A stretch of DNA of 64,000 nucleotides from Trematomus loennbergii (Eukaryota; Chordata; Actinopteri; Perciformes; Nototheniidae), in NCBI GenBank assembly GCA_012861695.1, contig JAAOOA010000178.1, positions 93,501 through 157,500 on the forward strand, in the 5' to 3' direction. The stretch's first letter is position 1. Each line of letters begins with the position of its first letter. The position numbers and the translations under genes were made by a program. Shown here in pieces: positions 8,437 through 60,490 of the stretch. The notes beneath the pieces were generated by a model. The model saw nothing but the letters and a program-made list of their open reading frames with translations. It did not search any database and had not been told where the DNA came from.

Positions 8437-8438
8437 AA

Positions 8439-8455: not shown

Positions 8456-8476
8456 TTGTGTTGACAGCTTTTCCTA

Positions 8477-11290: not shown

Positions 11291-11299
11291 TGGATCTCT

Positions 11300-12904: not shown

Positions 12905-12944
12905 TCACAGGGATTTTTACTGGATCCTAATGTGCTGCACACAT

Positions 12945-12955
12945 TAGGGGGCGGC
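12945..12955 (+). promoter_or_regulatory. Polypurine tract of BEL element
   Basis: AGGGGGCGGC-type purine-rich stretch immediately before the 3' LTR, the expected plus-strand primer. Confidence 0.7.
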
Positions 12956-14927: not shown

Positions 14928-15300
14928 CTGCACAGAGGAAGAGGGGAGGAGAGGAAGAGAGAGGGGTTACAAAAGAGTACATTCAAACACTCTCTTTGGT
15001 GAGGTAACGTGACTGGAGGATTTTCAAAGATATTGTCAACTTATTTTGAAATATTAAAGATTATTTCCCATGTTTTCAATATTTCCTAGTTCATGATAAG
15101 TGTTATTAAGGTACACATATTCACCATCAACCAGCTGTTAACTAACATGCATATTAGAGCCAGACTACTAGCTTATTAGTGAACATATTCTGAGTTAGAA
15201 ATACCTGATTTTAAGTTATTTTGACACAATTACCACTTGTAGTTTCATGTCTTGTTACATAAGAATAGACGACATTTGTTAGGTGTTATTATGGGAGAAT
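14928..15300. other. csgalnact1 upstream intron, purine-rich then AT-rich
   Basis: GGAAGAGGGGAGGAGAGGAAG (minus-strand polypyrimidine tract of the acceptor) and then unique AT-rich sequence. No gene is seen. Confidence 0.65.
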
Positions 15301-15314
15301 TACTATTCTTGTGG

Positions 15315-15860
15315 TACTGCATATTGAACCTCGATTTTGGAGGGCCAGAAAAAAAGGGAAAAAGTAGCCCTGAGCCGGAACGAGCCCTAGTGGAAAAGCA
15401 AAGAAAACGGGCCGGGTTTGGCACGGCACGCTTAAACCGTGCTGCAGTGGAAATGCGCCATTAAAATGACTGTAGAGTGACTCAAACTGACTATAATGTG
15501 ATTTAAAAAGATTATAAAGCGACTTAAAGTGACCACGAAGAGACTCAAACTGACTATAATGTGACTCAGAATTGCTATTAAGAGACTCAAACTGACTAAG
15601 AGGACTCACAAAATGACCACAGAAAAACTAAACAACTATGAAAATGGGGAAAACTACCATTAAGAAAACACAAAAAGACTAATAAAGCTACGCTGCATGT
15701 AATGAGAACTAAAAAGCGACACATTTCCGCTTCCTTGCTGGGATCATTCGGCCCTAGTAATCCTCTTTTGCATAGCCGTGGGAACATGTTTCAAATGGGG
15801 GGTGCTGTGGGGATGACACCAGGGCCGGTTCTGACCAGTTTGCTGCCCTAGGCAAGATTT
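15315..15860. repeat. Dispersed DNA-transposon-like repeat (copy A, internally shortened)
   Basis: Contains GGCCGGGTTTGGCACGGCAC, a run of degenerate units around GAGACTCAAACTGACTATAA, and ends near CCAGGGCCGGTTCTGACCAG / GCCCTAGGCAAGA, sequence typical of fish non-autonomous DNA transposons. The copy B version (55560-56420) has about 330 bp more at its left side, so copy A appears deleted there. Confidence 0.55.
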
Positions 15861-17904
15861 TTGCTGGTTCATTTATATCTTATTTTACCAGTTAACATTT
15901 ATTTATTTATTTATCCATATTTTTTAATCTCTCCAGTTTTAAAGGATATTGTTGGTTTACTGTCCTATAGTATACATTGGAATGATTCAAACCGTTTTTA
16001 TTTATCCTAATAATTATAAAGGTGTGCCTTGGAAATATGTGTTTACATAAATTGTGATCAAACCGTTTGAGACCCACTGAGATAACTTAGACTAAAGTGA
16101 ACTATCTAAACACTCAGAGTCCTTTACCTCACTGAGCCTCTCAGGGCACATGGAAAATGTAACCGGGGTGAAAAGGGTGTTATCTTTACTTAATTATGAA
16201 TGTGAACATCAAGGCCGAACATTAGTTTTTTTTGTATTATATTTGTATTATATTTCCATGTAATCTTGTGGACGTGCAGATTCCCTGTCCTCCAGCAGGG
16301 GGCGCTGCAGCACCATCAGCACCCCTACTTACCACGGCCCTGCTCTTTGTATTTTTGTAATCTGAATATATCAACATCCTCATAAATCTCTCACATTGAC
16401 CTTTAATGAGGATTACATTAAGGAATAAACATGTTTTTAAGAAGTGAAATCCAGGAAAATCTGCAAGGATTTCATTTCATCTGCAGAAAATCCAGACAGA
16501 GAGAATCTCTCCTCCTTCATGTTGTTCACAACTCACAGAACCATCAGTTTATATTCAGTTCAAATCAGAGGTGTAAAGTAACTAAGTGCATTTACAAAGT
16601 ACTGTACTTAAGAATGCAGGACTTTTACTGTAACAGAGTATTCCTACACTCAGGTACTTTTACTCAAGTACAAGATCTGACACACAGAAGAGAGAACGAG
16701 CTTCTGTGCGTCAGAGGGTCAAAGTTGAGATACTTATCGAGGAGAATTGACTCAAATACACTTCATTTTTGCATTTAATTCTGTCACGAAGCAGTGTTTG
16801 GACCACCTTAGTCATGGGTTTGTTTTAAATACAAACATTTCAATATTAACTGTCACAAAAAATAGGCACATTTTTATTAAATGATGACAAATATCTCCAA
16901 TGTGCCCTTTTATGCATTTGAGCCCCTTCCCCTCTAACGTACTCTAATGTGTGCAGAGTAGTTACTGAGCATATAACAAACATCTCTCCATGGGGGGCAA
17001 CAATCTGACTTTAATCATGTAGAAAGATATCTGTGTTTATCTCAGCTTACATAACAATTACTTAAATAAAAGCACAGAGAAAATGAATAAGAATAATACA
17101 TTATAATCATAATGGGCTGAAGTGTGGCCTCGTTACAAAGAGAAGCATCTGATAGGAGGGAAAGGATTCATCATTTCATCGACTTTGTGGACGTTACTTT
17201 AGAATAAGAGTTAGTCATTTGAAAAGCTCTGTTGTAAATAATAATATTATAATGATCACAAAACAGCAAGAAGGGTCTTCCAGGTTTGATTGGTTATTTG
17301 TAATCTTTATTATACAGACACTTGATAACTGATAGATATATATACCAAGGTGTGAGAACACATGATATAACACTGACACCATGACAGGTACAGGAGTTAT
17401 GAAATGCATCAAACATAAATCACATTCTTTCACATCGAATTCAAAGAAAATCACAATTATTTGATTTGAAATAAAACATCAGAATAAAAACACAGGATTA
17501 AAAATAAGGGGATTAAAATCATTGAATGTGAAAGCGATGTTTAAAAGGTTGATAAGTGAACATTTAACAATATCTATGAAAACAACACGGAGCAGAGCGG
17601 AGCAGGGATCCTAACATCACAAGTCTTTACAAGAAGAGCAAAACACACATATATTTACAATATACAAGAATATATTCATACAAAACTAAATATATGTTTA
17701 TATTAATAACAATATCTTTATTTACTTTCAACATTTAAAACCCTCTTTTCTCTGTTGTTATTATGGGATATTTATATTTTGGGTGTTTATATATTTATTT
17801 ACTTTCTGAAGTTTCACTTTTCTATCTTTAAAACTGTCAAATCATTTATCAACCGAAATAATATTAATAATAATAATGATGTTACATGTTGCCGTCTCTG
17901 TAAC

Positions 17905-17906
<2 letters not shown>
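15861..17906. other. Intergenic, AT-rich; possible 3' region of the Ig-receptor gene
   Basis: No coding signal on either strand. About 16330-16780 (including an AGTACTT-rich repeat at 16570-16690) is absent from copy B, so it is an insertion here or a deletion there. Bases 16780-17906 match copy B closely and could be 3' untranslated sequence of the minus-strand gene that follows. Confidence 0.55.
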
Positions 17907-18152
<246 letters not shown>

Positions 18153-18197
18153 TCAGACTCAGATGTTGTGTTTGCATGAATTTCTAACATCCAGTGT

Positions 18198-19585
18198 TTA
18201 AATCCTGTTTCTGAGCCGCTGTATGAAAGAGGACGAGGACAGAGGGAAGTGAAATGAACAGATGCATATTAAGTGTCCCGTGTTCTGGTCCTCAGGGTCA
18301 CAGTGACTACAGCAACACAGAGCATCAGCAGCAGAACACTGAGCGCTGAGCATCTCACTGCGTAGAAGGTGGAGTGAACCCCAAAGGGGTCTCTGCAGGA
18401 GGGTCTTGGTTGAAGACAACACTGACCATTCTGTCATAACTGCACACCAATACTCTCCTGTGTCTTGCAGAGAGACATCAGAAATACCAATCTCCCATCA
18501 GGGTAGCGCGCACATTGCTGATCTGATATAAGCATAACAATGGTTCTTCCTTTGGTTCGGTTCGACTTAAAGAACCAAACGTGACTGACCCTTTTCCCTA
18601 TCTTTGCATCTGAGAGTGACTTCTTCTCCCCCTGAGAAGAGCTCTACAGCAGGGGGGGGGAATTTGGGGCACACAACAGATGATATTTTCACAGCATTTA
18701 AGGTTTTACAATAGTACTGACCTGCGTGATTTAACGTTACCGATGTTAACACCAGAGAGTAGTTCTGGTCCACTAAAGACCCAGAGTGGTTATGTTGTCC
18801 TTGGTCAATGTTGTTGAGTCTATCGTCCAATCTGGAGGCTTCTCTTTATTGAAACCAGAGTCAGGGCACTGCAACACAACCGTGTCTTCCACTGAGAGAT
18901 AGATCACTCATTGTTCAGTAATACTCTACAGGCTGACTGCTAACACACTGCTGTTGGTTCATCAGCAGGCAGGTGTATTCTCCGAGGTCAGCTGGTGAGA
19001 TGTTGGATATACGTAGAGCTGATGTGTTCTTCACCACTTGGTATCTTCCTCTATCATTGTCCATCACTGATGCCGTATCGTCCCCAAAAACTCTGGTCCA
19101 TGTTTTTGTTCAGGTCGATAATCCCGTTGAGCCACTGGACATCCAGGTGGTCAGCTGCTCCATCACAAGGCAGGTCTTTTGTTCTTCATCTTTCATGGAT
19201 TCACCTCTGGTCATCTATGAACCACAAACAGTAACTGTGAAGTGTTTCTCATGAGTCACTTGGCCCTCAGTCCAGCACTCCTCTTGGTACAGGCCGGAGT
19301 CTGAATGGGTCAGGTTCTGGATCTTGTAGGAAGAAGTATTGGCCACGCTGACGAGTCGTTGCTTCAGGTCTTCAGGTACTGAGGAGTTCTGGGGCCAGAG
19401 GTCAGAGGTGTTCCACAGGACCAGCTTCTCCTCACCAACAGATCTGGAGATCAGGCAGGAGCCGGCCTCCTCTGGGAGCTCGAAGGTGAAAGAGTCGCTT
19501 TCCTTTGGATGACGATGAGTTCTTCAGAGTGAATGTTGCTGATGAGAGCGAACAGCAGCACGGAGAGCTGGGAGACTGCAGCCAT
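18198..19585 (-). CDS. Multi-Ig-domain receptor-like gene, copy A (frames broken)
   Basis: The minus-strand start ATG at 19585 opens a signal peptide ([20 protein letters not shown]) followed by an Ig-V-like domain whose end reads [19 protein letters not shown]. Further Ig-like segments follow: [18 protein letters not shown] (about 19000), [18 protein letters not shown] (about 18720-18760) and a last one near 18450. A hydrophobic stretch ([17 protein letters not shown]) and a short Arg/Thr tail end near 18260. This is a type I surface-receptor layout, resembling teleost immunoglobulin-superfamily innate receptors; I cannot name the gene. Several 1-2 bp indels relative to copy B break it (for example two extra bases near 19487). 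An intron-containing, decayed or unpolished gene are all possible. Confidence 0.6.
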
Positions 19586-20010
19586 TCTGCTCGGAGGTTT
19601 CCTCGCGAGTGTTGTGCAAACACTGACACCGCTCACTATAAGATCTGTATCAACCCTCAGCAACAGCGTCTCATTGGTGGACTGAAAACATGACATCTTT
19701 ATCTCATCTTCAGTGGAAACTTTGAAGGGTTAGAGTTATCAAGTGATCTCTGGGTTTGGATTTACGTCACAGCCACGCTCTTCGTGTCTGAGTAATGAAT
19801 ATGCTTTATAGAGATCTGCAGATACATTTTTAGTCTTCTCAAGCACCAACTATCAAATATCTCTCCTGATTGTTGGCACTTGACAATCACCTTCACTGAA
19901 TTGTACTCAGGTGTAACTAAAGTCTGATTTAAGGGTTGTTTATATTTCACATCATTAATCCAAATCTGTAAAGTAACTAAAATAAATGTAGTAAAAATAC
20001 CAGGTTAACC
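19586..20010. other. Upstream region of Ig-receptor gene, copy A
   Basis: A TATA-like element (minus strand CTTATAG, about 19637-19642) lies about 55 bp above the start codon. One base is missing relative to copy B. The rest is AT-rich, with no gene. Confidence 0.55.
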
Positions 20011-20043
20011 TTAAAGAAAGCCCTCAGGATTATCAAAGACCCC
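20010..20043 (+). mobile_element. LINE 3' ORF fragment, left part
   Basis: In copy B the uninterrupted sequence (60085 onward) reads LRIIKDPHHPSHK then LLPSGRRYRSIRTETSR, the C-terminal motif found in fish non-LTR retrotransposons. Here it is split by the 13.2-kb element and resumes at 33275. Confidence 0.75.
20038..20043. repeat. Target-site duplication GACCCC, left
   Basis: Identical to 33275-33280; the empty site in copy B has a single copy (plus one extra C). Confidence 0.85.
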
Positions 20044-20159
20044 AGTAGTAATACAAATCCTGTTTCAATCACATTAGTATGCATAAAAAGTGACAGGTCA
20101 CACCTGCCCTATCAGTACTACTACTTATGCTAAGTCCCGCCCCCTAATTATGCTAATGA

Positions 20160-20690
20160 GCCCCTTTGATATGCTAATGAGCCCCTTTGTTCGAGGTGTT
20201 ATCACATGTAGGTGTGACATTCCCCATTGTAGTAGATCCTTTGTTGTGTAATCTAATTAGCCTTTGATGTCTGATCCCTTTGTTGTCTATCCTTTGATGT
20301 GAGGGGTGAGGTGTTTGTGACATGTAGGTGTGATATCCCTGTTGTAGTAGATCCTTTGTTGTATAATCTAATTAGCCTTTGATGTCTGCCCCCTTTGTTG
20401 TCTAATTACCCTTTGATGTCTATCCTTTGATGTGAGGGATGGGGTGTTTGTGACATGTAGGTGTGAACTCCCCCTTGTAGTAGATCCTTTGTTGTATAAT
20501 CTAATTAGCCATTGATGTCTGACCCCTTGTTGTCTAATCTAATTAGACCCTTTGATGTCTGTCCTTTGATGTAAGGTGGGAGGTGTTATAACATGTAGGT
20601 GTGATATTCTCCCTTGTAGTAGATCTTTGATGTCAATCTAATTAGCCCTTTGATGTATGTCCTTTGATCAGTGTTTGTAATTAGTGTTAA
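20160..20690. repeat. Subterminal tandem repeats with dense CTTTGAT/CTTTGTT motifs, left arm
   Basis: Four to five degenerate copies of a roughly 110-130 bp unit containing TAGTAGATCCTTTGTTGT, TAATCTAATTAG, CCTTTGATGT and ACATGTAGGTGTGA. By eye, CTTTGAT occurs eleven times between 20164 and 20668, and CTTTGTT several more. The core (ATCAAAG/AACAAAG) matches the WWCAAAG consensus of TCF/LEF and SOX HMG-box proteins. The mirrored array is at about 32628-33158. Confidence 0.8.
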
Positions 20691-20702
20691 GGTAGTCTCT
20701 TT

Positions 20703-21175
20703 GAAGTTGTGTGAGACTGTCTCGCACCCCGTCCTCCTCTCACCTCTTCCCCCTCTCACCCCTCCCCCCTTCCTTTTGCTGTGATGTCAGAAGATAGAGG
20801 GTGGAGTTAGATGGAAAATAAAATCCGTGCAAACTAGATAAAAAGCCAGTCATTTCCACTCACCAAGTCACCTAAACTTTCAAAAACGAAAATGGCAAAG
20901 AGACGCATCGATATGGGGTTTAATCAGCGAGACGCCTGTGACAACTTACCGCCATCCGTCGGGAGCTCCAGTCAAGAAACGGATGCAGTATCTGTGCCGG
21001 GTTCAGACCCTCCGTCGGAGGCTCTTCATGAAAAATGGAGTCTGGATGTGTGAGACTGTCTCCCCTCACACCCCCTAACACCCCCTCCCCTCCCCCCTGC
21101 CTGTCACCTCCTGATTTTCCTATCAGCCGTTAATTCTCATTCACTAAGTCACCTAAAACTTTTATTGTCCTCTCT
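20703..21175. repeat. Short direct repeats flanking the basic ORF
   Basis: GTGTGAGACTGTCTC followed by a C/T-rich run, and TCACNAAGTCACCTAAA, occur both upstream (20710-20880) and downstream (21048-21165) of the small ORF at 20892. This suggests a local duplication bracketing the gene. The mirror is in the right arm. Confidence 0.65.
20892..21053 (+). pseudogene. Small basic protein ORF, left arm (1-bp insertion)
   Basis: Starts MAKRRID like its partner at 32240-32425, but one extra T after codon 7 (GATATGGGG versus GATAGGGG) moves it into another frame that stops after 53 codons. A TATA-like AGATAAAAAGCC lies about 45 bp upstream. The right-arm version is the more basic product, so the left copy looks like the mutated one. 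Function unknown. Confidence 0.5.
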
Positions 21176-21404
21176 AAATTAGATTAGTTTTTTAATATGA
21201 TTTGTGTTAACTAGGATGTTCTCTTAAGTTGTATGGCTTGTGAACTAATGTTTAATTACTTTATTAACTATAACAAAGTCTCTCTGAGAGGAAAATAATA
21301 ATTTAAAATATGTTAATGACCCCCTGATATTGTATTTTGTAATGTTTAATTACTTCGCACAACTATTAATGAATCCCTATATGAAGTTACATGAGGCTAC
21401 ATTT

Positions 21405-21605
21405 ACTTGGGTTGAGCCCTGGATGATGAAAATAATCTAAGTGTCATGTTAGGGGGGCATTACGGAACTCAGGAGTCCGCCCTTGGAGGCCTGGAGAGCG
21501 GATAAAGAGAGTGTATTTACTGGTGTTGAGCCCTGGATGATGTAAATAGTCCAAGTGCCATGGTAGGGGGGCATTACGGAACTCAGGAGTCCGCCCTTTG
21601 AGGCG
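21405..21605. repeat. 108-bp tandem duplication, left arm
   Basis: Two copies of a unit reading GTTGAGCCCTGGATGATG ... GGGGGGCATTACGGAACTC ... AGGAGTCCGCCCTT. The mirror in the right arm is at about 31715-31915. No stable ORF. Confidence 0.85.
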
Positions 21606-21779
21606 TTGTTAACATTAATGCTTTTGTTTTTGTTACTAAGATACTTTTTTAGATACACTTTTGAAGTGAGCAACACTTTACAACTGGTAGAAAGTTAAGT
21701 ACTTTGTATGGAATGGGGTTTTCTTTAGAGCTGTTTTCAGTGAGACAATGCAGTTTCTGATCATTTTAAGTTTTCAAGT

Positions 21780-21890
21780 TTCAAGGCTTTATGGCATATG
21801 CCCATTAGCTACAGTGTAGATATGTCAATGAAAAACATAGGTCACAGGCTCCTCCAACAGTGCACATAAAACAGATAAAATACTGCAATA
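21780..21890 (-). mobile_element. LINE 3' tail fragment, left arm
   Basis: Reverse complement of the LINE tail seen at 33525-33590 (CTCCAACAG, GGTCACAGGCTCC, TAGCTACAGTGTAG). The mirror is at about 31430-31540. Confidence 0.65.
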
Positions 21891-21954
21891 GAATGTTTTG
21901 ATATGACAGATTTGTGCGTAATTCTCTCACAAAGGAACTGTAAGATACACGTTT

Positions 21955-24015
21955 ATGTATGGAAAACTTCATAACTTGGTAAAATATTCATTCATTTGTA
22001 ACGAATTGAGTTTTCTTCAAGAATCAAACTCTAATGGAGAGTTTATGATTTTTAACACTGTTTCGATGAAACAATGCAGTTTTTGATAACTTGACTTGAC
22101 TAACATTACTTTTTTTAAATATATGTTTTTAGATGCTTTACTTTTGATTTCTTTCATGTTATTTTAACACATTACTTTTTTCATATTTTTCAACATACTG
22201 TGATATTTTTTTTTTCTCTCCTTTTTCCATTATATTTTGAATATACAGACATTCAACGCAATAAGTCCCACCCCAATTAGCAAATCATCCAAAACTAAGG
22301 ACCCCCACTAAGACGAACAGATTTTCTTTAAGACTGTGACTCTTAAAGGCACTTTGGGATTTTAGTAAAACAATCCAGTTTTCTGGAAATAACTTAAATG
22401 ATTTTCGTTTTTTCTCCTACAAAGATACTTATAGTTACACTTTAATGGATGCAAAACTTTATAACTTGGTAAAATATTCATTAATTTGTAATGAATTGAG
22501 ATTCTTAAAGAATCAAACTCTAAATGGAGAGTTTGTGATTTTAACACTGTTTCGATGAAACAATACAGTTTTTGATAACTTGACTTGACTAACATTACTT
22601 TTTTAAATATATGTTTTTGTTAGATGACTTTACTGATTTTTGCTTTTTTCTTCCTTGCTTTTGTTTGTGTTACTAGGATACTTTTAGATACACTTTGAAG
22701 TGTGCAACACTTTACAACTGATAGAATAGTACTTTTGTAAGGAATTGGGTTTCTTAACAATCCTGCTCCATCATTAAATCACTTAATCTGCTACTTCCAG
22801 GCAAAAAGCTTTTAAAACTCGCATCGTGTATTAAGTCATGTCTTGGCAAAAATGAGAGTCCTGGGTGCTTTAAAACATTTCTTAGAACATTTTGATATAT
22901 TCAAACACATAATGAACTGCAATGACTCACTGCTACATCAAATTTATTTTACACTGCTGGGAGGACAAAACTATGAGACTCTCAGACCCTTTTGTTGTCA
23001 ATCTAATTAGCCTGTCCTCATTCCAACTAAAGTAATTTAACCTAAGTGGAGCCAACCTAAGGAGTGGGCCCTACAGTCTGGGACTAGCTTACTTTTTAAC
23101 ATTCTAATCAAAGGGGCCCGTAAATATTATCTCCGCCAATATGCTATATTCAAATATCAGTTAAAAAAAAATAAAATAAAAAATAAAACTCATTTCATGT
23201 TGAAATGATCAAGGAAAAGCCAGTCAATGTTATGCTAACACAAACAAAAGTTCTGTTTTATATGTTGAAATATAATTTAAAAAACAACGATATAGTATTT
23301 TCAAGTCTTACTTTAGTATGGTAAAATTAAGAATAAGTCACATTAAAGTTTGTCATGATTTTCCGTAAAATAGTCAAGTATAGTTTGTCAAAAGAATATG
23401 AAAAAATCATTTTGTAGAGTAGTATGTTGAAAATCTCAGTGTTTAACTGAACACACCTACACAACACCTCGAACAAAGGGGTAATTAGCATACAAAGGGG
23501 GGTCACTAGCATCAGTGGGGGAAAGGTGCTACGGAAATGAACTTTGAGGAGAACAGAGTTATACCGACTAATTATTTACGGCGTTCGAACGCATACCTCG
23601 TCAACCATCTGTTTACAAACTCAAAGATTATGATGGAGAAGAGATCAAGGGGACTTTTTTATGAGAAAGAGTTGAAAAAGTGAAGGTAGTACTTTTTTTA
23701 TGAACAGATTTTCTTTAAGACTGTGACTCTTAAAGGCATTTTCTAGTAAGACAATCCAGTTTTCTGGAAATAACTTGAATGATTTTTGTTTTTTCTCCTA
23801 CAAAGATACTTATAGTTACACTTTAATGGATGCAAAACTTTATAACTTGGTAAAATATTCATTAATTTGTAATGAAATTAGTTTCTTAAAGAATCAAACT
23901 CTAAATGGAGAGTTTGTGATTTTAACACTGTTTTAGATGAAACAATGCGGTTTTGATAACTTGACTTGACTAACATAACTTTTTTTTTTTTTTAAATATA
24001 TGTTTTTTAGATGCT
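21955..24015. repeat. Three internal dispersed copies of an AT-rich 150-300 bp repeat, left arm
   Basis: A block with TAACTTGGTAAAATATTCAT, AATCAAACTCTAAATGGAGA, TTTTAACACTGTTTCGATGA and TAACTTGACTTGACTAACAT occurs at about 21960-22140, 22435-22620 and 23815-24005. AGATTTTCTTTAAGACTGTG precedes two of them (about 22319 and 23705). No protein is evident. The mirror is in the right arm. Confidence 0.85.
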
Positions 24016-24828
24016 TTACTTTGATTTCTTTCATGTTATTTTAACACAACATTACTTTTTTCATATTTTTCAACATACTGTGATATTTTGTTTTTTCTCT
24101 CCTTTTTCCATTATATTTTTGAAAAACTACACAGTGATTTTTATCAAAATACAACATGCAACTAATACATTATACAATATTACGACTTTTTGCGATATTT
24201 TCAACACAATATACTTGTACCTTTTTCTGTAGGGCTTCAGGATATTTGGCATGTCATGCATAAAAACCGGTGTCATCTTTCCTGAAACTGACGTGCTGTC
24301 CGTTTTACAAACAAGTTATCTTTCTGCTTCTTCACCCTCTGAATTTTCCTCCCCCGTCCCTATTCCTTCAGCCATCACAACAACAATCAAGTCAGATCTG
24401 TGAAATTAAACACCTCTCCCCAAAGCGTGACTTCCCTATTGATGGAGTGGGGCCGTAGGGCCTAACCCGATTGGCCTAATATACTAACATGCAGAATGTA
24501 TGGTATGTTTGAAAAAAGACTAACCATCTATCCAGTTCAAGCTGTCTTTAAGATGCGACATCGTGCTCTGACTTTTTCCGTAAAATCGTGACAAACTATT
24601 ACTTATTCTTACATTTGACCTCTTGCTGCTTGGTTGGAAATGATAGATGAAAAAGCTACAAAGCTTAAAGAACTTTTCTAAAAAACTCTCAATTCTACAG
24701 ATGAATCCCCCCACTCAACGCAATAAGTCCGCCCCCCACTCAGCAAATCATCTAAAACGAAGGACCCCACTAAGACGACCGTTGAAAACTAGCCAGGGAT
24801 CTGAGAAAAACCAAGTCTCCCCCGCGAG

Positions 24829-25188
24829 TTGCAGCCAGGAACAAACTCCTGTCTCCTATCATCACCACCATTGTGGACACCCACATATTGCAGTACTACT
24901 GCTGCTGATGTTACTCCTGAGGCCAAGACGTCTCTGTTTATGAACATAGTCAAATCGGAGTTGGTTGATATTCTGGAGAGGGTGCTGCATCGGTACAGAG
25001 AAAAAATCTGCAATGGATGCCGAGTCAGTCACCCCGGCCAGAGGCAACACGATTGTCTGAATGACACTCCAGAATATTTCTTCAGAAACAATTACAACGC
25101 GTTAATGAAAAGTCTTTGGCTCGCCGACTTCATTACAGTGAATGACCAGAGTCTTAATGATAAAAAAACAAAACATTTACACGGCTGA
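24829..25188 (+). CDS. Cys/His-motif protein ORF, left arm
   Basis: 119-codon ORF. A helical, acidic segment (SLFMNIVKSELVDILERVLH, about residues 36-54) leads into CNGCRVSHPGQRQHDC (residues 61-76), a C-x2-C-x3-H-x5-H-x-C pattern that could bind zinc. It then continues FFRNNYNALMKSLWLADFI. The right-arm copy has one more A in an A-run and so stays open to 182 codons. I have a faint recollection of similar Cys/His motifs in fish DNA-virus-like elements, unverified. Codon structure and conservation between arms suggest a once-real protein. Confidence 0.55.
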   Translation: MQPGTNSCLLSSPPLWTPTYCSTTAADVTPEAKTSLFMNIVKSELVDILERVLHRYREKICNGCRVSHPGQRQHDCLNDTPEYFFRNNYNALMKSLWLADFITVNDQSLNDKKTKHLHG

Positions 25189-25380
25189 ATGGAGGATCCA
25201 AGGCGCTTCGGAGGCTTTTCTGTACAATCTCAAAAACTGCAGACGCCTCAAGGAGAGACTTGAAAAGATCCATGCCGAGCTGGATGGATAGGAAGAAGAC
25301 TAATAACCAGCGGTTGATTGAAGCCGGGGATTTTTTTTTTTTTTTTCGATACTTTTACTTTTCTTTAAAGTAAAATAAAA

Positions 25381-25845
25381 ATGGGTAACTACTATGGAAA
25401 ACAATCTGTATATATCTATCAGAATGCAGTCAATACCTGTTTAATAAGTGTGTTGTTGATGACGATTGAAAACAGAATGAATAGTGATCCCCGTGTAAAC
25501 AGAACGGCTGAAGTTTGTAAACTAGAAGACATTTTGGATATCGTTCATTCTGGCAGTACTATTCCGGGTCATTGGGAAACGATTGTAAACGAAACTTTAA
25601 AAGTGGTACTGGAATCTTAATTTTCCAAAACATTCTGTAACATTACCGAAGAAATGAAACAAACACCAAAAGTGTATCATGTGCTCGCATTGTATGCTCT
25701 GTTTGTAGATGTAATGCATCTTTGTGTCAAAAACAGCATACACATGAATACTTTGGCCGAAGTGCAAAAACTCCATTATAATATTTCCCTTCATCTAGGG
25801 GATTCTGTGCTGGAGAAGATCATGGGGATGTTGCAATCAGTATAA
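25381..25845 (+). pseudogene. 155-codon ORF split by one in-frame TAA, left arm
   Basis: A 79-codon ORF starts MGNYYGKQSVYIY and ends KVVLES at TAA 25618-25620. The same frame then continues through 11 codons into MKQTPKVYHVLALYALFVDV and closes at 25845, so the two short ORFs are one frame with one stop. The predicted product is largely helical with hydrophobic faces. An identical arrangement, including the stop, is in the right arm. I do not recognise the family. Confidence 0.6.
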
Positions 25846-26084
25846 ATGTATTACTGCTTCCTATGGGGTGAAAACAATAAATTGTAAATATGAAATTCTG
25901 CAAATAATAAAAAGTGTTTTTACATTTTTTAAAAACTGTTGTCTTCAAATCATAGTATAGTATTTCCTACATATCATTTTTTTAAAAGAGTCACAGTATA
26001 GAATGTCTGAACATTTTATTTTTAAAAGTACTAGTATAGTATGTTAAAAGTATCGTGAAAAAAGTCCAAGTATAGTATGTAGTT

Positions 26085-27241
26085 AAGAATTATATTATAT
26101 ATTTTGTCTGCAATGTCAGTATAGGATCTCTAAAAAAAAAAATGAGAGAAAGTCATAGTATAGTTTGACAAAAAGATCTTGAAAAAGTCATGACATTATG
26201 TGTTGAAATGGTTTTGAATAAACACATCAGTATTTTTAAAAAGTAAAATGGTATCAAGTGCATCAGACAACTCAAATTACTCAATTTGAACCATATTATA
26301 AATAAGTAAAGAATGGTCATAGTATATAACAGGGCTGTTTAATAGTTTTCGGCGTTTCAGTGTTTTAGTGTTTTCAGTGTTTCAGGGTTTGTTGTCAGTG
26401 TCAGTGTTTCAGTGTTTTGTGTGTCAGTGTGTCAGTGTGCAGTGTTTCAGTGTTTTGTGTGTCAGTGTTTCAGTGGTTCAGTGTGTGTCAGTGTTTCAGT
26501 GTGTCAGTGTTTTGTGTTTTTGTGTTTCAGTGTTTTTGTGTGTCAAAGTTTTCAGTGTTTCAGTATTTCAGTGTTTCGGTTTTTCAGTGTTTCAGTGTTT
26601 TGTGTGTCAATGTGTCAGTGTTTCAGTTTTCAGTGTTTCAGTGTTTTGTGTTTCAGTGTTTCAGTGTGTCAGTGTTTTGTGTGTCAGTGTTTCAATGTTT
26701 CAGTGTTTCAGTGTTTTGTGCTTCTGTGTTTTTTTGTGTGTCAGTGTTTTCAGTGTTTTCAGTATTTCAGTGTTTCAGTGTTTGTGTGTCAATGTGTCAG
26801 TGTGGCAGTGTTTTGTGTTTCAGTGTTTCAGTGTTTTGTGTGTCAGTGTTTTCAGTGTTTCAGTATTTCAGTGTTTCAGTGTTTTGTGTGTCAATGTGTC
26901 AGTGTGTAAGTGTTCTGTGTTAAGTGTGTCAGTGTTTTCAGTGTTTCAGTATTTCAGTGTTTTGTGTTTCAGTGTTTCAGTGTTTTGTGTGTCAATGTGT
27001 CAGTGTGTCAGTGTTTCAGTGTTTCAGTTTTCAGTGTGTCAGTGTTTACAGCCTTGCTTTGCTCTGATCAATCCCCAGGGATCCTCCCCTGGAAGGAATA
27101 TAGCAGGACGAGAGAAAAACATTTAAAAAAAAAACGTATCTTAGAGGTGGCTATAGCATCTGATGCAATTCTAAAAGATAGTCAGATTCCTAAAAAGTTA
27201 CAAACGGATGCTGGAAACATTTGTTTCTTCATCATACATAC
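26085..27241. other. Asymmetric centre of the palindrome
   Basis: Unpaired 1157 bp between the arms. The left third is AT-rich; the middle is the octamer minisatellite; 27050-27241 holds a short non-repetitive piece (for example frame reading ASDAILKDSQIPKKLQTDAG) that is not recognised. Confidence 0.8.
26357..27048 (+). repeat. Octamer minisatellite TCAGTGTT/TCAGTGTG
   Basis: About 690 bp of 8-bp units TCAGTGTT with variants TCAGTGTG, TCAGTATT and TTGTGTGT. Since 8 is not a multiple of 3, all three forward frames read similar Phe/Val/Cys/Gln-rich nonsense (VSVFQCF), which explains the overlapping ORFs of up to 252 codons. It sits at the apex of the palindrome. Confidence 0.95.
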
Positions 27242-27479
27242 AACTACATACTATACTTGGACTTTTTTCACGATACTTTTAACATACTATACTAGTACTT
27301 TTAAAAATAAAATGTTCAGACATTCTATACTGTGACTCTTTAAAAAAATGATATGTAGGAAATACTATACTATGATTTGAAGACAACAGTTTTAAAAAAA
27401 TGTAAAAACACTTTTTATTATTTGCAGAATTTCATATTTACAATTTATTGTTTTCACCCCATAGGAAGCAGTAATACAT

Positions 27480-27944
27480 TTATACTGATTGCAACATCCC
27501 CATGATCTTCTCCAGCACAGAATCCCCTAGATGAAGGGAAATATTATAATGGAGTTTTTGCACTTCGGCCAAAGTATTCATGTGTATGCTGTTTTTGACA
27601 CAAAGATGCATTACATCTACAAACAGAGCATACAATGCGAGCACATGATACACTTTTGGTGTTTGTTTCATTTCTTCGGTAATGTTACAGAATGTTTTGG
27701 AAAATTAAGATTCCAGTACCACTTTTAAAGTTTCGTTTACAATCGTTTCCCAATGACCCGGAATAGTACTGCCAGAATGAACGATATCCAAAATGTCTTC
27801 TAGTTTACAAACTTCAGCCGTTCTGTTTACACGGGGATCACTATTCATTCTGTTTTCAATCGTCATCAACAACACACTTATTAAACAGGTATTGACTGCA
27901 TTCTGATAGATATATACAGATTGTTTTCCATAGTAGTTACCCAT
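27480..27944 (-). pseudogene. 155-codon ORF split by one in-frame TAA, right arm
   Basis: Mirror of 25381-25845. The 79-codon part is 27944-27705, the stop is at 27705-27707 and the 63-codon part is 27671-27480. It reads the same as the left arm, so the stop predates the formation or last homogenisation of the palindrome. Confidence 0.6.
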
Positions 27945-27951
27945 TTTTATT

Positions 27952-28500
27952 TTACTTTAAAGAAAAGTAAAAGTATCGAAAAAAAAAAAAAAAAAAATCC
28001 CCGGCTTCAATCAACCGCTGGTTATTAGTCTTCTTCCTATCCATCCAGCTCGGCATGGATCTTTTCAAGTCTCTCCTTGAGGCGTCTGCAGTTTTTGAGA
28101 TTGTACAGAAAAGCCTCCGAAGCGCCTTGGATCCTCCATTCAGCCGTGTAAATGTTTTGTTTTTTTTATCATTAAGACTCTGGTCATTCACTGTAATGAA
28201 GTCGGCGAGCCAAAGACTTTTCATTAACGCGTTGTAATTGTTTCTGAAGAAATATTCTGGAGTGTCATTCAGACAATCGTGTTGCCTCTGGCCGGGGTGA
28301 CTGACTCGGCATCCATTGCAGATTTTTTCTCTGTAACGATGCAGCACCCTCTCCAGAATATCAACCAACTCCGATTTGACTATGTTCATAAACAGAGACG
28401 TCTTGGCCTCAGGAGTAACATCAGCAGCAGTAGTACTGCAATATGTGGGTGTCCACAATGGTGGTGATGGTAGGAGACAGGAGTTTGTTCCTGGCTGCAA
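27952..28500 (-). CDS. Cys/His-motif protein ORF, right arm (longer frame)
   Basis: 182 codons, same start and CNGCRVSHPGQRQHDC motif as the left arm. An 8-A run (7 in the left arm) keeps it open into a Lys/Arg-rich tail (SRRDLKRSMPSWMDRKKTN), ending in a poly-Phe artefact over a T-run. This longer form is the better candidate for the original protein. Function unknown. Confidence 0.55.
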   Translation of the reverse strand: MQPGTNSCLLPSPPLWTPTYCSTTAADVTPEAKTSLFMNIVKSELVDILERVLHRYREKICNGCRVSHPGQRQHDCLNDTPEYFFRNNYNALMKSLWLADFITVNDQSLNDKKNKTFTRLNGGSKALRRLFCTISKTADASRRDLKRSMPSWMDRKKTNNQRLIEAGDFFFFFFRYFYFSLK

Positions 28501-31500
28501 CTCGCGGGGGAGACTTGGTTTTTCTCAGATCCCTGGCTAGTTTTCAACGGTCGTCTTAGTGGGGTCCTTCGTTTTAGATGATTTGCTGAGTGGGGGCGGA
28601 CTTATTGCGTTGAGTGGGGGGATTCATCTGTAGAATTGAGAGTTTTTTAGAAAAGTTCTTTAAGCTTTGTAGCTTTTTCATCTATCATTTCCAACCAAGC
28701 AGCAAGAGGTCAAATGTAAGAATAAGTAATAGTTTGTCACGATTTTACGGAAAAAGTCAGAGCACGATGTCGCATCTTAAAGACAGCTTGAACTGGATAG
28801 ATGGTTAGTCTTTTTCAAACATACCATACATTCTGCATGTTAGTATATTAGGCCAATCGGGTTAGGCCCTACGGCCCCACTCCATCAATAGGGAAGTCAC
28901 GCTTTGGGGAGAGGTGTTTAATTTCACAGATCTGACTTGATTGTTGTGATGGCTGAAGGAATAGGGACGGGGGAGGAAAATTCAGAGGGTGAAGAAGCAG
29001 AAAGATAACTTGTTTGTAAAACGGACAGCACGTCAGTTTCAGGAAAGATGACACCGGTTTTTATGCATGACATGCCAAATATCCTGAAACCCTACAGAAA
29101 AAGGTACAAGTATATTGTGTTGAAAATATCGCAAAAAGTCGTAATATTGTATAATGTATTAGTTGCATGTTGTATTTTGATAAAATCACTGTGTAGTTTT
29201 TTCAAAAATATAATGGAAAAAGGAGAGAAAAAACAAAATATCACAGTATGTGAAAAATATGAAAAAAGTAATGTTGTGTTAAAATAACATGAAAGAAATC
29301 AAAGTAAAGCATCTAAAAAACATATATTTAAAAAAAAAAAAAAGTATGTTAGTCAAGTCAAGTTATCAAAACCGCATTGTTTCATCTAAAACAGTGTTAA
29401 AATCACAAACTCTCCATTTAGAGTTTGATTCTTTAAGAAACTAATTTCATTACAAATTAATGAATATTTTACCAAGTTATAAAGTTTTGCATCCATTAAA
29501 GTGTAACTATAAGTATCTTTGTAGGAGAAAAAACAAAATCATTCAAGTTATTTCCAGAAAACTGGATTGTCTTACTAGAAAATGCCTTTAAGAGTCACAG
29601 TCTTAAAGAAAATCTGTTAATAAAAAAAGTACTACCTTCACTTTTTCAACTCTTTCTCATAAAAAAGTCCCCTTGATCTCTTCTCCATCATAATCTTTGA
29701 GTTTGTAAACAGATGGTTGACGAGGTATGCGTTCGAACGCCGTAAATAATTAGTCGGTATAACTCTGTTCTCCTCAAAGTTCATTTCCGTAGCACCTTTC
29801 CCCACTGATGCTAGTGACCCCCTTTGTATGCTAATTACCCCTTTGTTCGAGGTGTTGTGTAGGTGTGTTCAGTTAAACACTGAGATTTTCAACATACTAC
29901 TCTACAAAATGATTTTTTCATATTCTTTTGACAAACTATACTTGACTATTTTACGGAAAATCATGACAAACTTTAATGTGACTTATTCTTAATTTTACCA
30001 TACTAAAGTAAGACTTGAAATACTATATCGTTGTTTTTTAAATTATATTTCAACATATAAAACAGAACTTTTGTTTGTGTTAGCATAACATTGACTGGCT
30101 TTTCCTTGATCATTTCAACATGAATGAGTTTTATTTTTTATTTTATTTTTTTTAACTGATATTTGAATATAGCATATTGGCGGAGATAATATTTACGGGC
30201 CCCTTTGATTAGAATGTTAAAAAGTAAGCTAGTCCCAGACTGTAGGGCCCACTCCTTAGGTTGGCTCCACTTAGGTTAAATTACTTTAGTTGGAATGAGG
30301 ACAGGCTAATTAGATTGACAACAAAAGGGTCTGAGAGTCTCATAGTTTTGTCCTCCCAGCAGTGTAAAATAAATTTGATGTAGCAGTGAGTCATTGCAGT
30401 TCATTATGTGTTTGAATATATCAAAATGTTCTAAGAAATGTTTTAAAGCACCCAGGACTCTCATTTTTGCCAAGACATGACTTAATACACGATGCGAGTT
30501 TTAAAAGCTTTTTGCCTGGAAGTAGCAGATTAAGTGATTTAATGATGGAGCAGGATTGTTAAGAAACCCAATTCCTTACAAAAGTACTATTCTATCAGTT
30601 GTAAAGTGTTGCACACTTCAAAGTGTATCTAAAAGTATCCTAGTAACACAAACAAAAGCAAGGAAGAAAAAAGCAAAAATCAGTAAAGTCATCTAACAAA
30701 AACATATATTTAAAAAAGTAATGTTAGTCAAGTCAAGTTATCAAAAACTGTATTGTTTCATCGAAACAGTGTTAAAATCACAAACTCTCCATTTAGAGTT
30801 TGATTCTTTAAGAATCTCAATTCATTACAAATTAATGAATATTTTACCAAGTTATAAAGTTTTGCATCCATTAAAGTGTAACTATAAGTATCTTTGTAGG
30901 AGAAAAAACGAAAATCATTTAAGTTATTTCCAGAAAACTGGATTGTTTTACTAAAATCCCAAAGTGCCTTTAAGAGTCACAGTCTTAAAGAAAATCTGTT
31001 CGTCTTAGTGGGGGTCCTTAGTTTTGGATGATTTGCTAATTGGGGTGGGACTTATTGCGTTGAATGTCTGTATATTCAAAATATAATGGAAAAAGGAGAG
31101 AAAAAAAAAATATCACAGTATGTTGAAAAATATGAAAAAAGTAATGTGTTAAAATAACATGAAAGAAATCAAAAGTAAAGCATCTAAAAACATATATTTA
31201 AAAAAAGTAATGTTAGTCAAGTCAAGTTATCAAAAACTGCATTGTTTCATCGAAACAGTGTTAAAAATCATAAACTCTCCATTAGAGTTTGATTCTTGAA
31301 GAAAACTCAATTCGTTACAAATGAATGAATATTTTACCAAGTTATGAAGTTTTCCATACATAAACGTGTATCTTACAGTTCCTTTGTGAGAGAATTACGC
31401 ACAAATCTGTCATATCAAAACATTCTATTGCAGTATTTTATCTGTTTTATGTGCACTGTTGGAGGAGCCTGTGACCTATGTTTTTCATTGACATATCTAC

Positions 31501-31714
31501 ACTGTAGCTAATGGGCATATGCCATAAAGCCTTGAAACTTGAAAACTTAAAATGATCAGAAACTGCATTGTCTCACTGAAAACAGCTCTAAAGAAAACCC
31601 CATTCCATACAAAGTACTTAACTTTCTACCAGTTGTAAAGTGTTGCTCACTTCAAAAGTGTATCTAAAAAAGTATCTTAGTAACAAAAACAAAAGCATTA
31701 ATGTTAACAACGCC
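28501..31714. repeat. Right arm, inverted copy of the non-coding middle of the left arm
   Basis: Mirrors 21605-24828, including the three AT-rich dispersed repeats (about 29330-29530, 30715-30900, 31195-31360). No protein-coding signal is seen. Confidence 0.85.
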
Positions 31715-32239
31715 TCAAAGGGCGGACTCCTGAGTTCCGTAATGCCCCCCTACCATGGCACTTGGACTATTTACATCATCCAGGGCTCAACACCAGTAAA
31801 TACACCTCTCTTTATCCGCTCTCCAGGCCTCCAAGGGCGGACTCCTGAGTTCCGTAATGCCCCCCTAACATGACACTTAGATTATTTTCATCATCCAGGG
31901 CTCAACCCAAGTAAATGTAGCCTCATGTAACTTCATATAGGGATTCATTAATAGTTGTGCGAAGTAATTAAACATTACAAAATACAATATCAGGGGGTCA
32001 TTAACATATTTTAAATTATTATTTTCCTCTCAGAGAGACTTTGTTATAGTTAATAAAGTAATTAAACATTAGTTCACAAGCCATACAACTTAAGAGAACA
32101 TCCTTAGTTAACACAAATCATATTAAAAAACTAATCTAATTTAGAGAGGACAATAAAAGTTTTAGGTGACTTAGTGAATGAGAATTAACGGCTGATAGGA
32201 AAATCAGGAGGTGACAGGCAGGGGGGAGGGGAGGGGGTG

Positions 32240-32425
32240 TTAGGGGGTGTGAGGGGAGACAGTCTCACACATCCAGACTCCATTTTTCATGAAGAGCCTC
32301 CGACGGAGGGTCTGAACCCGGCACAGATACTGCATCCGTTTCTTGACTGGAGCTCCCGACGGATGGCGGTAAGTTGTCACAGGCGTCTCGCTGATTAAAC
32401 CCCTATCGATGCGTCTCTTTGCCAT
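32240..32425 (-). CDS. Small basic protein ORF, right arm
   Basis: 61-codon ORF starting MAKRRIDRG, with many Arg/Lys and a central APVKKRMQYLCRVQTLRRRL segment. Charge and size would suit a DNA-packaging or core-like peptide of a Polinton/adenovirus-like replicon, but this is only a guess from composition. Flanked by the short repeats described for the left arm and preceded by a TATA-like sequence. Confidence 0.5.
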   Translation of the reverse strand: MAKRRIDRGLISETPVTTYRHPSGAPVKKRMQYLCRVQTLRRRLFMKNGVWMCETVSPHTP

Positions 32426-32627
32426 TTTCGTTTTTGAAAGTTTAGGTGACTTGGTGAGTGGAAATGACTGGCTTTTTATCTAGTTTGCACGGATTTTATT
32501 TTCCATCTAACTCCACCCTCTATCTTCTGACATCACAGCAAAAGGAAGGGGGGAGGGGTGAGAGGGGGAAGAGGTGAGAGGAGGACGGGGTGCGAGACAG
32601 TCTCACACAACTTCAAAGAGACTACCT

Positions 32628-33158
32628 TAACACTAATTACAAACACTGATCAAAGGACATACATCAAAGGGCTAATTAGATTGACATCAAAGGATCTACT
32701 ACAAGGGAGAATATCACACCTACATGTTATAACACCTCCCACCTTACATCAAAGGACAGACATCAAAGGGTCTAATTAGATTAGACAACAAGGGGTCAGA
32801 CATCAATGGCTAATTAGATTATACAACAAAGGATCTACTACAAGGGGAGTTCACACCTACATGTCACAAACACCCCATCCCTCACATCAAAGGATAGACA
32901 TCAAAGGGTAATTAGACAACAAAGGGGGCAGACATCAAAGGCTAATTAGATTATACAACAAAGGATCTACTACAACAGGGGATATCACACCTACATGTCA
33001 CAAACACCTCACCCCTCACATCAAAGGATAGACAACAAAGGGATCAGACATCAAAGGCTAATTAGATTACACAACAAAGGATCTACTACAATGGGGAATG
33101 TCACACCTACATGTGATAACACCTCGAACAAAGGGGCTCATTAGCATATCAAAGGGGC
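32628..33158. repeat. Subterminal tandem repeats with dense ATCAAAG/AACAAAG motifs, right arm
   Basis: Inverted copy of 20160-20690 with the same unit order. Confidence 0.8.
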
Positions 33159-33274
33159 TCATTAGCATAATTAGGGGGCGGGACTTAGCATAAGTAGTAG
33201 TACTGATAGGGCAGGTGTGACCTGTCACTTTTTATGCATACTAATGTGATTGAAACAGGATTTGTATTACTACT

Positions 33275-33280
33275 GACCCC
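33275..33280. repeat. Target-site duplication GACCCC, right
   Basis: Partner of 20038-20043; the LINE reading frame resumes immediately after. Confidence 0.85.
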
Positions 33281-33600: not shown

Positions 33601-33819
33601 TCAAGCATACTTTAAGCACAAAACAATAAATAAGGGCACTTTGTGATTTGATTTCCTCAAACTCCTCCAGCTCCTCGTGTTCTCCCAGATTTTAATCCTA
33701 ATACAAAGGAGCTTTTTGACTAAAACCAAAACTAATTGCGCGACGGGACAACAAGCTTCCTGCTGGGGTTTTCTAAGGATGTGGTGAGAGTAAAAGAGAA
33801 AACAGCTGCATCCAGATGT

Positions 33820-33905
<86 letters not shown>

Positions 33906-34780
33906 GTAAGACTTAACATCACTTGTAGACTTGAACACTCTTCTATGCAGAATTCTCTCCAGACAGAACACCATAAGAAATGAGTGTTCTTCAGAGGAAG
34001 CACCACAGTGTGTCGCACACAGAGTCTTGTCCTGTCAGTGAGGTGTGTGGCATGTGGGGCAGAAGTTACAGTGTTTCTGTGGTTCTGGGTGCAGGGCTTC
34101 ATTCTGCAGGATTATATATAGGTGACCTTTGGGTCTGTGGTTTGAGAATTGTGTTTAGTGTTTTGAGAAAATGAGCCCTGTTGTTAAAACATGTGTTTTA
34201 GCAATTGATAAAAACTGTAATATAGAGTCAATGTGACGTGTTGTTGCCTTTAGCTGAAGTCTCAGGGAACCTTGTTTTGGACCAATCTCCCCCGGTGTGT
34301 GAAGGCCTCTACAGAGAGTCTCTGTCACATGATCAGGGTTCTCTGTCACATGATCAGGGTTTTCTGTCGGCCAGGTCTTCAGTTTGCTCAGTGGTTCAGT
34401 TCTATAGAAGCAGAAAGAGTTAGAGGACATTCTGAGTCTCTGTCCCTGCCTGTGTTGAACGCATCCATTAAAGATGATATTAAAGTATATATAATACTGT
34501 CTTTAACTTCTCTGACCTGCTTTTCTGAGGAACTGATGACGAAGATGCTGATGGTTTACAGATTACAGAAACTGTTGGTTTCCTGTTTCCATGACACCAG
34601 GCTGTCCTATCAGATGCTGTCAGAGTAGATTCAACTTTAACACGAAGAAGAGCTGGACTCAAAATATATCACCGTCTTTGAACTCAGGGTTCATACGAGT
34701 TCATGTTGAAGATCACTCCGTACATTTAGATTCTGAAATGTGCCATCATGAAAAATTTGTTTTTTTACTTCTAATAGTTT
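33601..34780. other. Intergenic, shared with copy B; CA microsatellite and 20-bp tandem
   Basis: A (CA)n microsatellite lies at about 33819-33905. A 20-bp unit, TCTGTCACATGATCAGGGTT, is tandem at about 34319-34365 (two copies here, more in copy B). Unique sequence otherwise, with no gene recognised. Confidence 0.7.
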
Positions 34781-58026: not shown

Positions 58027-58036
58027 ATCTCTCTTC

Positions 58037-58103
<67 letters not shown>

Positions 58104-60084: not shown

Positions 60085-60490
60085 AACCTTAAAGAAAGCC
60101 CTCAGGATTATCAAAGACCCCCATCACCCCAGCCACAAACTGTTCTGTCTGCTGCCGTCTGGCAGGCGGTACCGCAGCATCCGGACTGAAACCTCCAGAC
60201 TCAGGGACAGCTTCATCCCACAGCCAGAAGACTATTAAACACCTGGACTTAGAAACAACATCCATAACATTCATCTGGCTGCTACTTAGAAATTATTTAT
60301 CTAATATATCATATTCCAATCACTTGTATATAGACTCTTATTGACTATTTCACTATTTTACTATTTACTATTTTTCTTTTTGTATTTACTTGCACTATTT
60401 TTCCTGTGTATCTGTTTCATTGTGTTGCTCTGTTGGAGGAGCCTGTGACCTAAGATTTTCATTGACATAACTACACTGTAGCTATGTACG
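60085..60490 (+). mobile_element. LINE 3' ORF fragment and tail, copy B (empty site of palindromic element)
   Basis: An open frame reads ALRIIKDPHHPSHKLFCLLP and continues SGRRYRSIRTETSRLRDSFI, the C-terminal motif of fish LINE ORF2 proteins, then the tail. GACCCC at about 60115-60120 is the single-copy target used by the 13.2-kb element in copy A. Confidence 0.8.

What the first reader, a model, noticed from the sequence alone, without database searches (positions are those of the whole stretch)
20038..33280. 13.2-kb near-perfect palindrome inserted with a 6-bp target duplication: a fold-back Polinton-like or viral integrant
Seen: two arms of about 6.04 kb in inverted orientation, AG...CT ends, GACCCC on both sides, and the intact target in copy B. 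Known: Maverick/Polinton elements make 6-bp duplications and have long inverted termini beginning AG, but their termini are normally hundreds of bases and enclose about 10 core genes. Inferred: one end of such an element (or a linear protein-primed viral genome) was copied as an inverted dimer and then integrated as a unit, because symmetry and duplication stop at the same base. A palindrome of this size mobilised as a single unit would be unusual.
Basis: partly seen in the sequence, partly recalled or inferred. Interest (0 to 1): 0.88.

Follow-up and report, generated by a model that had tools for sequence, protein, structure and literature searches.

The report
Mirror-image satellite of fish Mavericks
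This 13-kb mirror-image stretch of fish DNA is one copy of a jumping element that seems to have arisen when one end of a virus-like Maverick folded back and copied itself, and that has since spread as a palindrome, probably with Maverick enzymes.

Summary
Confirmed and extended. The window holds a 13.2-kb palindrome (arms 99.5% identical) with 6-bp target duplications and an empty site in a duplicate copy. It is not a one-off: the host genome carries many near-identical palindromes, mostly 12-16 kb, and 9 of 10 fetched ones have perfect 6-bp duplications. The termini are Maverick/Polinton termini (AGTAGT//ACTACT), homologous to both ends of a polB- and integrase-bearing Maverick in the same genome; a second palindrome family has ends 98-99% identical to that Maverick's. 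The palindromes' axis lies inside the Maverick integrase gene: in family 2 integrase homology runs into a loop and then reverses, the footprint of a strand that snapped back. This junction occurs at 32 + 153 sites (controls 0). Best reading: non-autonomous, self-complementary 'snap-back' Maverick genomes, copied and integrated in trans. Protein-primed replication and trans-mobilisation are inferred; no polB element with exactly family-1 ends was found. The searches made showed no report of such elements; snap-back viral genomes are known elsewhere.

The parts
20038..20043 (.). left 6-bp target duplication GACCCC
20044..33274 (.). palindromic element, 13,231 bp, ends AGTAGT...ACTACT
20044..26084 (+). 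left arm (the part that still has a counterpart)
27242..33274 (-). right arm, inverted, 99.49% identical
20044..20220 (+). Maverick-type terminus, about 78% identical (gaps counted) to both ends of the polB Maverick on C687
33098..33274 (-). same terminus at the right end
21276..21395 (+). 120-bp segment 74% identical to the polB-side interior of the C687 Maverick
23463..23521 (-). inverted piece of the Maverick terminus inside the arm (85% over 61 columns)
24619..24882 (+). pieces 78-88% identical to the integrase-side interior of the C687 Maverick
24835..25185 (+). interrupted accessory ORF, 42% identical over 84 aa to the ORF next to the C687 integrase gene
27952..28500 (-). right-arm counterpart of the accessory region, open for 182 aa; no Pfam match
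   Evidence: the pairing with 24835-25185 follows from symmetry
26354..27047 (+). GTTTCAGT-type minisatellite of the inner arm; its counterpart is missing from the right arm of this copy
27123..27227 (+). fragment of a Maverick integrase gene (22 of 35 residues identical) running into the axis
27214..27227 (.). axis hairpin GAAACA-TT-TGTTTC; beyond it about 1.1 kb of right arm is missing
33275..33280 (.). right 6-bp target duplication GACCCC
60116..60122 (.). uninterrupted target site in copy B (GACCCCC)

Best explanation
A non-autonomous, self-complementary satellite of Maverick (Polinton) elements. Inferred origin: during protein-primed copying of a Maverick, a new strand started at the integrase-side terminus, ran through the accessory region into the integrase gene, left its template, folded back on a few bases, and copied itself back to its own start. 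The result is an inverted dimer with a replication and integration terminus at each end and no working polymerase, integrase or capsid gene. A displaced strand of such a dimer folds into a hairpin whose stem end is a complete origin, so a helper's polymerase could recopy it; the helper's integrase would insert the whole palindrome with a 6-bp duplication. Shown: the palindromic unit, its duplications, Maverick termini, the axis inside the integrase gene with a fold-back loop, many copies, two families. Inferred: protein-primed replication, enzymes in trans, and snap-back copying as one way in which arms are made alike.
For: Perfect 6-bp duplications at 9 of 10 fetched family-1 copies plus the window's, at 2 of 4 other elements (C630, C753; C229 and C460 have one mismatch), at 4 of 5 family-2 elements (C1 and C2625 share flanks) and at the polB Maverick C687. 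End motif as in vertebrate Mavericks. Terminus homologous to both ends of C687, which has a 1,203-aa polB frame, an rve integrase (E 1.6e-13) and inverted termini 14.36 kb apart. Family-2 termini 98-99% identical to C687's; C2625 mirror slices 99.86% over 695 bp. Integrase fragment at the axis: 22 of 35 residues in family 1, 28 of 44 and 18 of 23 on the two sides in family 2; 67 bp at 82% ending where the sequence turns back. Junction patterns at 32 and 153 sites, controls 0, within 6% of the midpoint in 17 of 19 and 12 of 15 pairs that carry one. Private deletions present in both arms: 376 bp in C27, 25 bp in C120. C28 and C115 have two inverted axis hairpins 69 bp apart, suggesting a second fold-back (the C28 sequence is, that of C115 was not read).
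Against: No polB element with exactly family-1 termini: of the 59 contigs holding the 100 listed of 142 terminus sites, 6 also hold listed polB matches, the nearest 42.9 kb away. A 120-bp arm segment matches the other (polB-side) end of C687, and several kb of arm match none of the C687 pieces held. Arms within a copy are not closer than arms of different copies (0.03-0.79% against mean 0.27%). No private substitution is shared by both arms in any of 11 copies; a long variant haplotype sits in one arm only in C209 and C56; C311 has a 1.3-kb insertion and a 140-bp deletion in one arm only. So arms are not equalised at every cycle. Only 19 of 34 family-1-type pairs and 15 of 37 polB-less family-2-type pairs carry a listed axis junction, and the window's own trimmed axis is not among the matches. 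No extrachromosomal form, read-level check or mobilisation was seen.
Confidence: 0.8

Rival explanations
1. The inverted dimer arose by a chromosomal event (inverted duplication, or two Mavericks in opposite orientation with loss between them) and was then moved as a unit by Maverick integrase; the arms are kept alike by ordinary arm-to-arm gene conversion in the chromosome, not by snap-back copying.
For: Symmetric deletions and matching terminal variants fit gene conversion too; one-arm haplotypes in C209 and C56 suggest incomplete conversion or recombination rather than wholesale copying.
Against: A loop of about 31 nt of integrase sequence at the turn (read by eye) is what snap-back of a growing strand leaves, though chromosomal breaks can also fold back; the strand polarity fits a strand started at the integrase-side end; a second fold-back is suggested in two copies.
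Confidence: 0.13
2. An independent long-TIR or foldback-type DNA transposon with its own transposase, only resembling Mavericks.
For: Long inverted arms with tandem repeats recall foldback elements (recalled, no call).
Against: Terminal homology to polB+integrase Mavericks, the 6-bp duplication, (AGT)2 ends, the shared accessory ORF and the integrase fragment at the axis.
Confidence: 0.03
3. Assembly artefact: inverted copies made by chimaeric reads.
For: No reads could be checked. Between the window's arms there are 22 gap events, 15 of them in runs of one base, against 5 mismatches, as expected of long-read errors.
Against: Different flanks with matching 6-bp duplications on both sides of many copies, one-arm insertions, deletions and private substitutions, and a junction sequence at 185 sites.
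Confidence: 0.03

Closest known systems
Maverick/Polinton elements of vertebrates (PMC8097293; section 7 and passages read, not the whole text)
   Same: (AGT)2//(ACT)2 ends, 6-bp duplications, most copies within the 12.7-24.6 kb size range, homologous termini and accessory ORF
   Different: inverted termini of about 7.2 kb instead of 46-1,447 bp; no core gene; one end represented twice
Snap-back defective genomes of adeno-associated virus (PMC8235507; abstract and passages read)
   Same: one genome end duplicated as a self-complementary molecule, symmetric or asymmetric about the fold; replicates when Rep and helper functions are supplied
   Different: parvovirus; described as virus particles' genomes, not as a repeat family of a host genome
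Yeast killer linear plasmid hairpin derivative (Kikuchi et al. 1985: only its title seen, in the reference list of PMC4443254; content recalled; paper not held)
   Same: recalled: a protein-primed linear element giving a hairpin and its inverted dimer from one end
   Different: recalled: cytoplasmic plasmid, no integration
MITEs and internal-deletion derivatives of DNA transposons (recalled)
   Same: non-autonomous copies that use a relative's enzymes
   Different: they keep both different ends of the parent; here the inner arm of one end is present twice with a fold-back junction

Membership tests
Maverick/Polinton | 6-bp target duplication | tested here: met
   imperfect in C56, C229 and C460, shifted by one base in C500
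Maverick/Polinton | (AGT)2//(ACT)2 or (AG)3//(CT)3 ends | tested here: met
Maverick/Polinton | termini homologous to an element with polB and rve integrase | tested here: met
Maverick/Polinton | protein-primed polB gene | tested here: not met
   no polB match on the window's contig C178 (91 of 116 candidates scored); no ORF of 200 aa or more in the element apart from minisatellite frames
Maverick/Polinton | integrase gene | tested here: not met
   only a fragment of about 35 codons at the axis
Maverick/Polinton | capsid, protease and ATPase genes | tested here: not met
   judged from ORF lengths only: nothing over 182 aa outside the minisatellite; the C687 partner was not examined for these genes
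Snap-back (defective) viral genome | one end duplicated as inverted dimer with a fold-back junction inside a gene | tested here: met
   but a 120-bp arm segment matches the other end
Snap-back (defective) viral genome | replicates only with a helper | not testable with these tools
   no core genes in it; polB Mavericks are in the same genome
Snap-back (defective) viral genome | interferes with the helper, or is packaged | not testable with these tools
   none
MITE / internal deletion derivative | retains both different ends of the parent | tested here: inconclusive
   the inner arm is integrase-side on both sides, but a 120-bp segment matches the polB side

The most novel reading that the evidence does not exclude
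Mavericks in this fish lineage carry a persistent parasite (or host-useful guard) of their own: a self-complementary satellite genome, founded by one snap-back inside the integrase gene, now in at least two families and apparently more numerous than its helper (185 axis junctions against 122 polB matches, several per gene). Because each copy is a long inverted repeat containing pieces of Maverick accessory and integrase sequence, its transcripts would be double-stranded and could feed small-RNA silencing of Mavericks, a heritable antiviral device. No RNA data were available.
Probability: 0.15. Interest if true: 0.9.

Novelty: new variant of a known kind. Interest (0 to 1): 0.75.

Why it matters
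Maverick particles have not been observed (PMC8097293, abstract), and I know of no direct demonstration of their replication mode (recalled). A snap-back junction inside the integrase gene, with the polarity expected of a strand started at a terminus, is a footprint of end-initiated copying. It points to satellite or defective-genome biology in vertebrate Mavericks, shows one way in which 14-kb palindromes can be made and spread in a vertebrate genome, and gives markers (two terminus patterns, two axis patterns) to test this in other fish.

Tried and rejected
Pfam scans of the element's ORF pieces found nothing useful. The accessory ORF has 3 relatives in the protein search, on short unnamed contigs, and none in viral contigs. 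The idea that arms are more alike within a copy than between copies was tested and not supported; private substitutions shared by both arms were sought and not found. In one search, 33 of 34 pairs have the same terminal variant at both ends (10.3 expected by random pairing), but this null is weak, because copies of one family share their ends by descent; I use it only as agreement. A first figure of 84-86% identity between families near the axis includes minisatellite; the unique 160 bp beside the axis differ at 6 sites (3.8%), so I dropped the claim of a very old lineage. C2161 mirror slices did not match; its axis is off-centre, and its right slice matches C2625. A helper with family-1 termini was looked for and not found. 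Literature: searches listed no title on palindromic, non-autonomous or defective Polintons or Mavericks; only capped listings were seen, the phrases 'non-autonomous/nonautonomous/defective Polinton' and 'non-autonomous/nonautonomous Maverick' occurred in no held paper, and the three papers with 'Polinton-derived' were not opened. Repbase and Dfam could not be searched.
Full report
WHAT IS THERE. The palindrome is real at the stated place: arms 20043-26084 and 33275-27242 align inverted at 99.49% over 6,051 columns, GACCCC flanks AGTAGT...ACTACT on both sides, and copy B of a local tandem duplication has the uninterrupted target with one extra C. The simplest reading is that the insertion is younger than the A/B duplication.

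IT IS A FAMILY. The outermost 200 bp was searched in the host genome (1.21 Gb, 3,566 contigs). Of the 40 candidates scored (of 1,599 first-look candidates), 28 form 14 inverted pairs 13.0-15.6 kb apart, the window's included; 12 were unpaired in that list. A 24-base terminus pattern with up to 2 mismatches has 142 sites (71 + 71; backward control 0), 100 of them listed. Among these 100 there are 34 inverted pairs under 20 kb: 25 are 12-16 kb and nine lie outside, three of those being 1.13-kb mini elements (for C753 that script paired the inner site, whereas the matching duplication belongs to the outer site, 9.3 kb). Ten further copies were fetched in halves: nine have perfect 6-bp duplications (C741 and C209 share the same flanks), and C56 has TATTAT against ATTATT in a microsatellite. 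All ten are palindromic along most of their length.

THE FULLER UNIT. In C28, C761 and C120 the arms are about 7.2 kb and the aligned parts stop 13-22 bases apart, at a conserved imperfect hairpin of about 50 bp. The window copy lacks about 1.1 kb of its right arm beside the axis, so its 'spacer' 26085-27241 is left-arm sequence without a partner. C311 has a 1.3-kb insertion and a 140-bp deletion in one arm only. Such one-sided changes argue against an assembly artefact; reads could not be checked.

THE TERMINI ARE MAVERICK TERMINI. Vertebrate Mavericks most often end (AGT)2//(ACT)2, make 6-bp duplications, have inverted termini of 46-1,447 bp and, when intact, are 12.7-24.6 kb long (PMC8097293: section 7 read; passages). 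The genome holds polB genes (122 matches to PF03175, 91 of 116 candidates scored). The element on C687 has a 1,203-aa polB frame, termini at 247954 and 262317, TACAAT on both sides and an integrase (PF00665, 1.6e-13). Its two ends are 78.2% and 77.7% identical, gaps counted, to the palindrome's outer 177 bp; in another alignment the left end differs by 11 substitutions in 153 columns plus 27 gap columns. The palindrome's interrupted ORF at 24835-25185 is 42% identical over 84 aa to the ORF between terminus and integrase of C687. Other pieces of the arm also match that end, but a 120-bp segment matches the polB-side end (74%), and an inverted piece of terminus lies inside the arm; I have no good account of these two.

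A SECOND FAMILY WITH MATCHING POLB MAVERICKS. Elements such as C2625, C831, C1, C399 and C500 have termini 98-99% identical to C687's. Of these five, four have perfect 6-bp duplications (C1 and C2625 share flanks) and C500 is shifted by one base. C2625 mirror slices 3 kb from the ends are 99.86% identical inverted; in C2161 the mirrored slices did not match, its axis being off-centre; the others were not tested for symmetry. A pattern of this terminus has 276 sites (141 + 135, control 0). From the 100 listed sites and seven pairs, 46 pairs were made by hand, without a length limit: 9 contain a polB match (14.4-16.3 kb) and 37 do not (27 of the 37 are 12.5-15.2 kb). The listed axis junctions fall in 15 of the 37 and 0 of the 9. 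The lists are cut, so these are lower bounds.

THE AXIS LIES INSIDE THE INTEGRASE GENE. A translated search with the C687 integrase matches the innermost arm of family 1 (22 of 35 residues) and both sides of the family-2 axis (28 of 44 and 18 of 23 residues). In C2625 the coding strand reads through 67 bp of integrase (82% identical to C687), ending at GAAGAAAC, and then continues as the reverse complement of sequence just passed, leaving a loop of about 31 nt with about 3 nt of possible pairing at the turn (loop and pairing read by eye). Family 1 has the same turn with a shorter loop, consistent with a deletion between CTG repeats (inference). The turn is what remains when a growing strand folds back and primes on itself, and its polarity is that of a strand begun at the integrase-side terminus (inference). 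The chimaeric junction patterns, up to 3 mismatches, occur at 32 and 153 sites, controls 0. A junction was listed in 19 of the 34 pairs and lies within 6% of the midpoint in 17 of them; for it is 12 of 15. The window's own trimmed axis is not among the matches. C28 and C115 carry two axis hairpins 69 bp apart in inverted order, suggesting a second fold-back.

HOW LONG, AND HOW ARE ARMS KEPT ALIKE. In the unique 160 bp beside the axis the window copy and C2625 differ at 6 sites; the two sides of C2625 do not differ over 99 bases, though its right side lacks about 61. Arms within a family-1 copy are 97.7-99.7% identical including gaps. So the palindromic state seems to have lasted while the families diverged by a few per cent and by much of their arm content. 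Two private deletions, 376 bp in C27 and 25 bp in C120, are in both arms, and a 10-bp deletion is in both arms of four copies. Against steady equalisation: within-copy differences (0.03-0.79%, substitutions only) are not smaller than between-copy ones (mean 0.27%), no private substitution is shared by both arms in any of 11 copies, and in C209 and C56 a long variant haplotype sits in one arm only. Exchange between arms happens, but not at every cycle; whether by snap-back copying or by gene conversion is open.

MECHANISM. Most likely a helper Maverick supplies polymerase and integrase. Protein-primed strand displacement releases a self-complementary strand that folds into a hairpin whose stem end is a complete origin; it is copied again to a full palindrome and integrated with a 6-bp duplication. 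These steps are inferred from anatomy and from knowledge of protein-primed systems; that repeated end motifs allow jumping-back in protein-primed replication is stated in PMC8097293 (passage). Snap-back molecules of one genome end are known as defective genomes of adeno-associated virus (PMC8235507, passages) and, from recall only, in a yeast linear plasmid and in adenovirus incomplete particles.

NOVELTY. The searches listed no title on palindromic or non-autonomous Mavericks; apart from the three papers named, only listings were seen. Repeat libraries could not be searched. I file it as a new variant of a known kind: a non-autonomous Maverick derivative in the form of a snap-back genome.

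HOST. A family-2 ORF has a 95%-identical relative, covering 40% of the query, in the icefish Chaenocephalus aceratus, so a notothenioid host is plausible but not shown.

CHANGES AFTER CHECKING.

Noticed in passing
window 4911-19873 / 51133-59988 and 33602-34361 / 63204-63973: Tandem segmental duplication (copies A and B); A alone carries the palindrome and a retroelement.
   Followed up: partly
window 7581-13810: BEL/Pao-type LTR retrotransposon by its DUF5641 and H2C2 zinc-finger matches (the name BEL/Pao is recalled), with LTR-like direct repeats of about 855 bp and an extra copy at 6475-7333.
   Followed up: partly
L064 (C630), C784 twice: 1.13-kb mini elements with the same class of terminus; C630 is palindromic and has a perfect CATACG duplication; the two on C784 were not read.
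   Followed up: partly
L067/L068 (C2625): Family-2 palindromes carry an open frame of at least 108 aa with internal repeats; no Pfam match; 3 relatives, one of them named (an icefish), two unnamed.
   Followed up: partly
C741/C209, C1/C2625, C229/C460: Pairs of elements with identical flanks: haplotype copies or segmental duplications in the assembly.
   Followed up: no
C27:18625145-18625819: A family-2-type terminus begins 674 bp beyond the end of a family-1 palindrome.
   Followed up: no
C1944:59699-60242 and C652:198202-198589: Two axis junctions close together, in opposite orientation on C1944 and the same orientation on C652; perhaps further rearranged palindromes.
   Followed up: no
window 6108-6474, 7335-7580, 13812-14291, 53756-54511: 37-bp minisatellite arrays next to or within the LTR-like repeats.
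   Followed up: no
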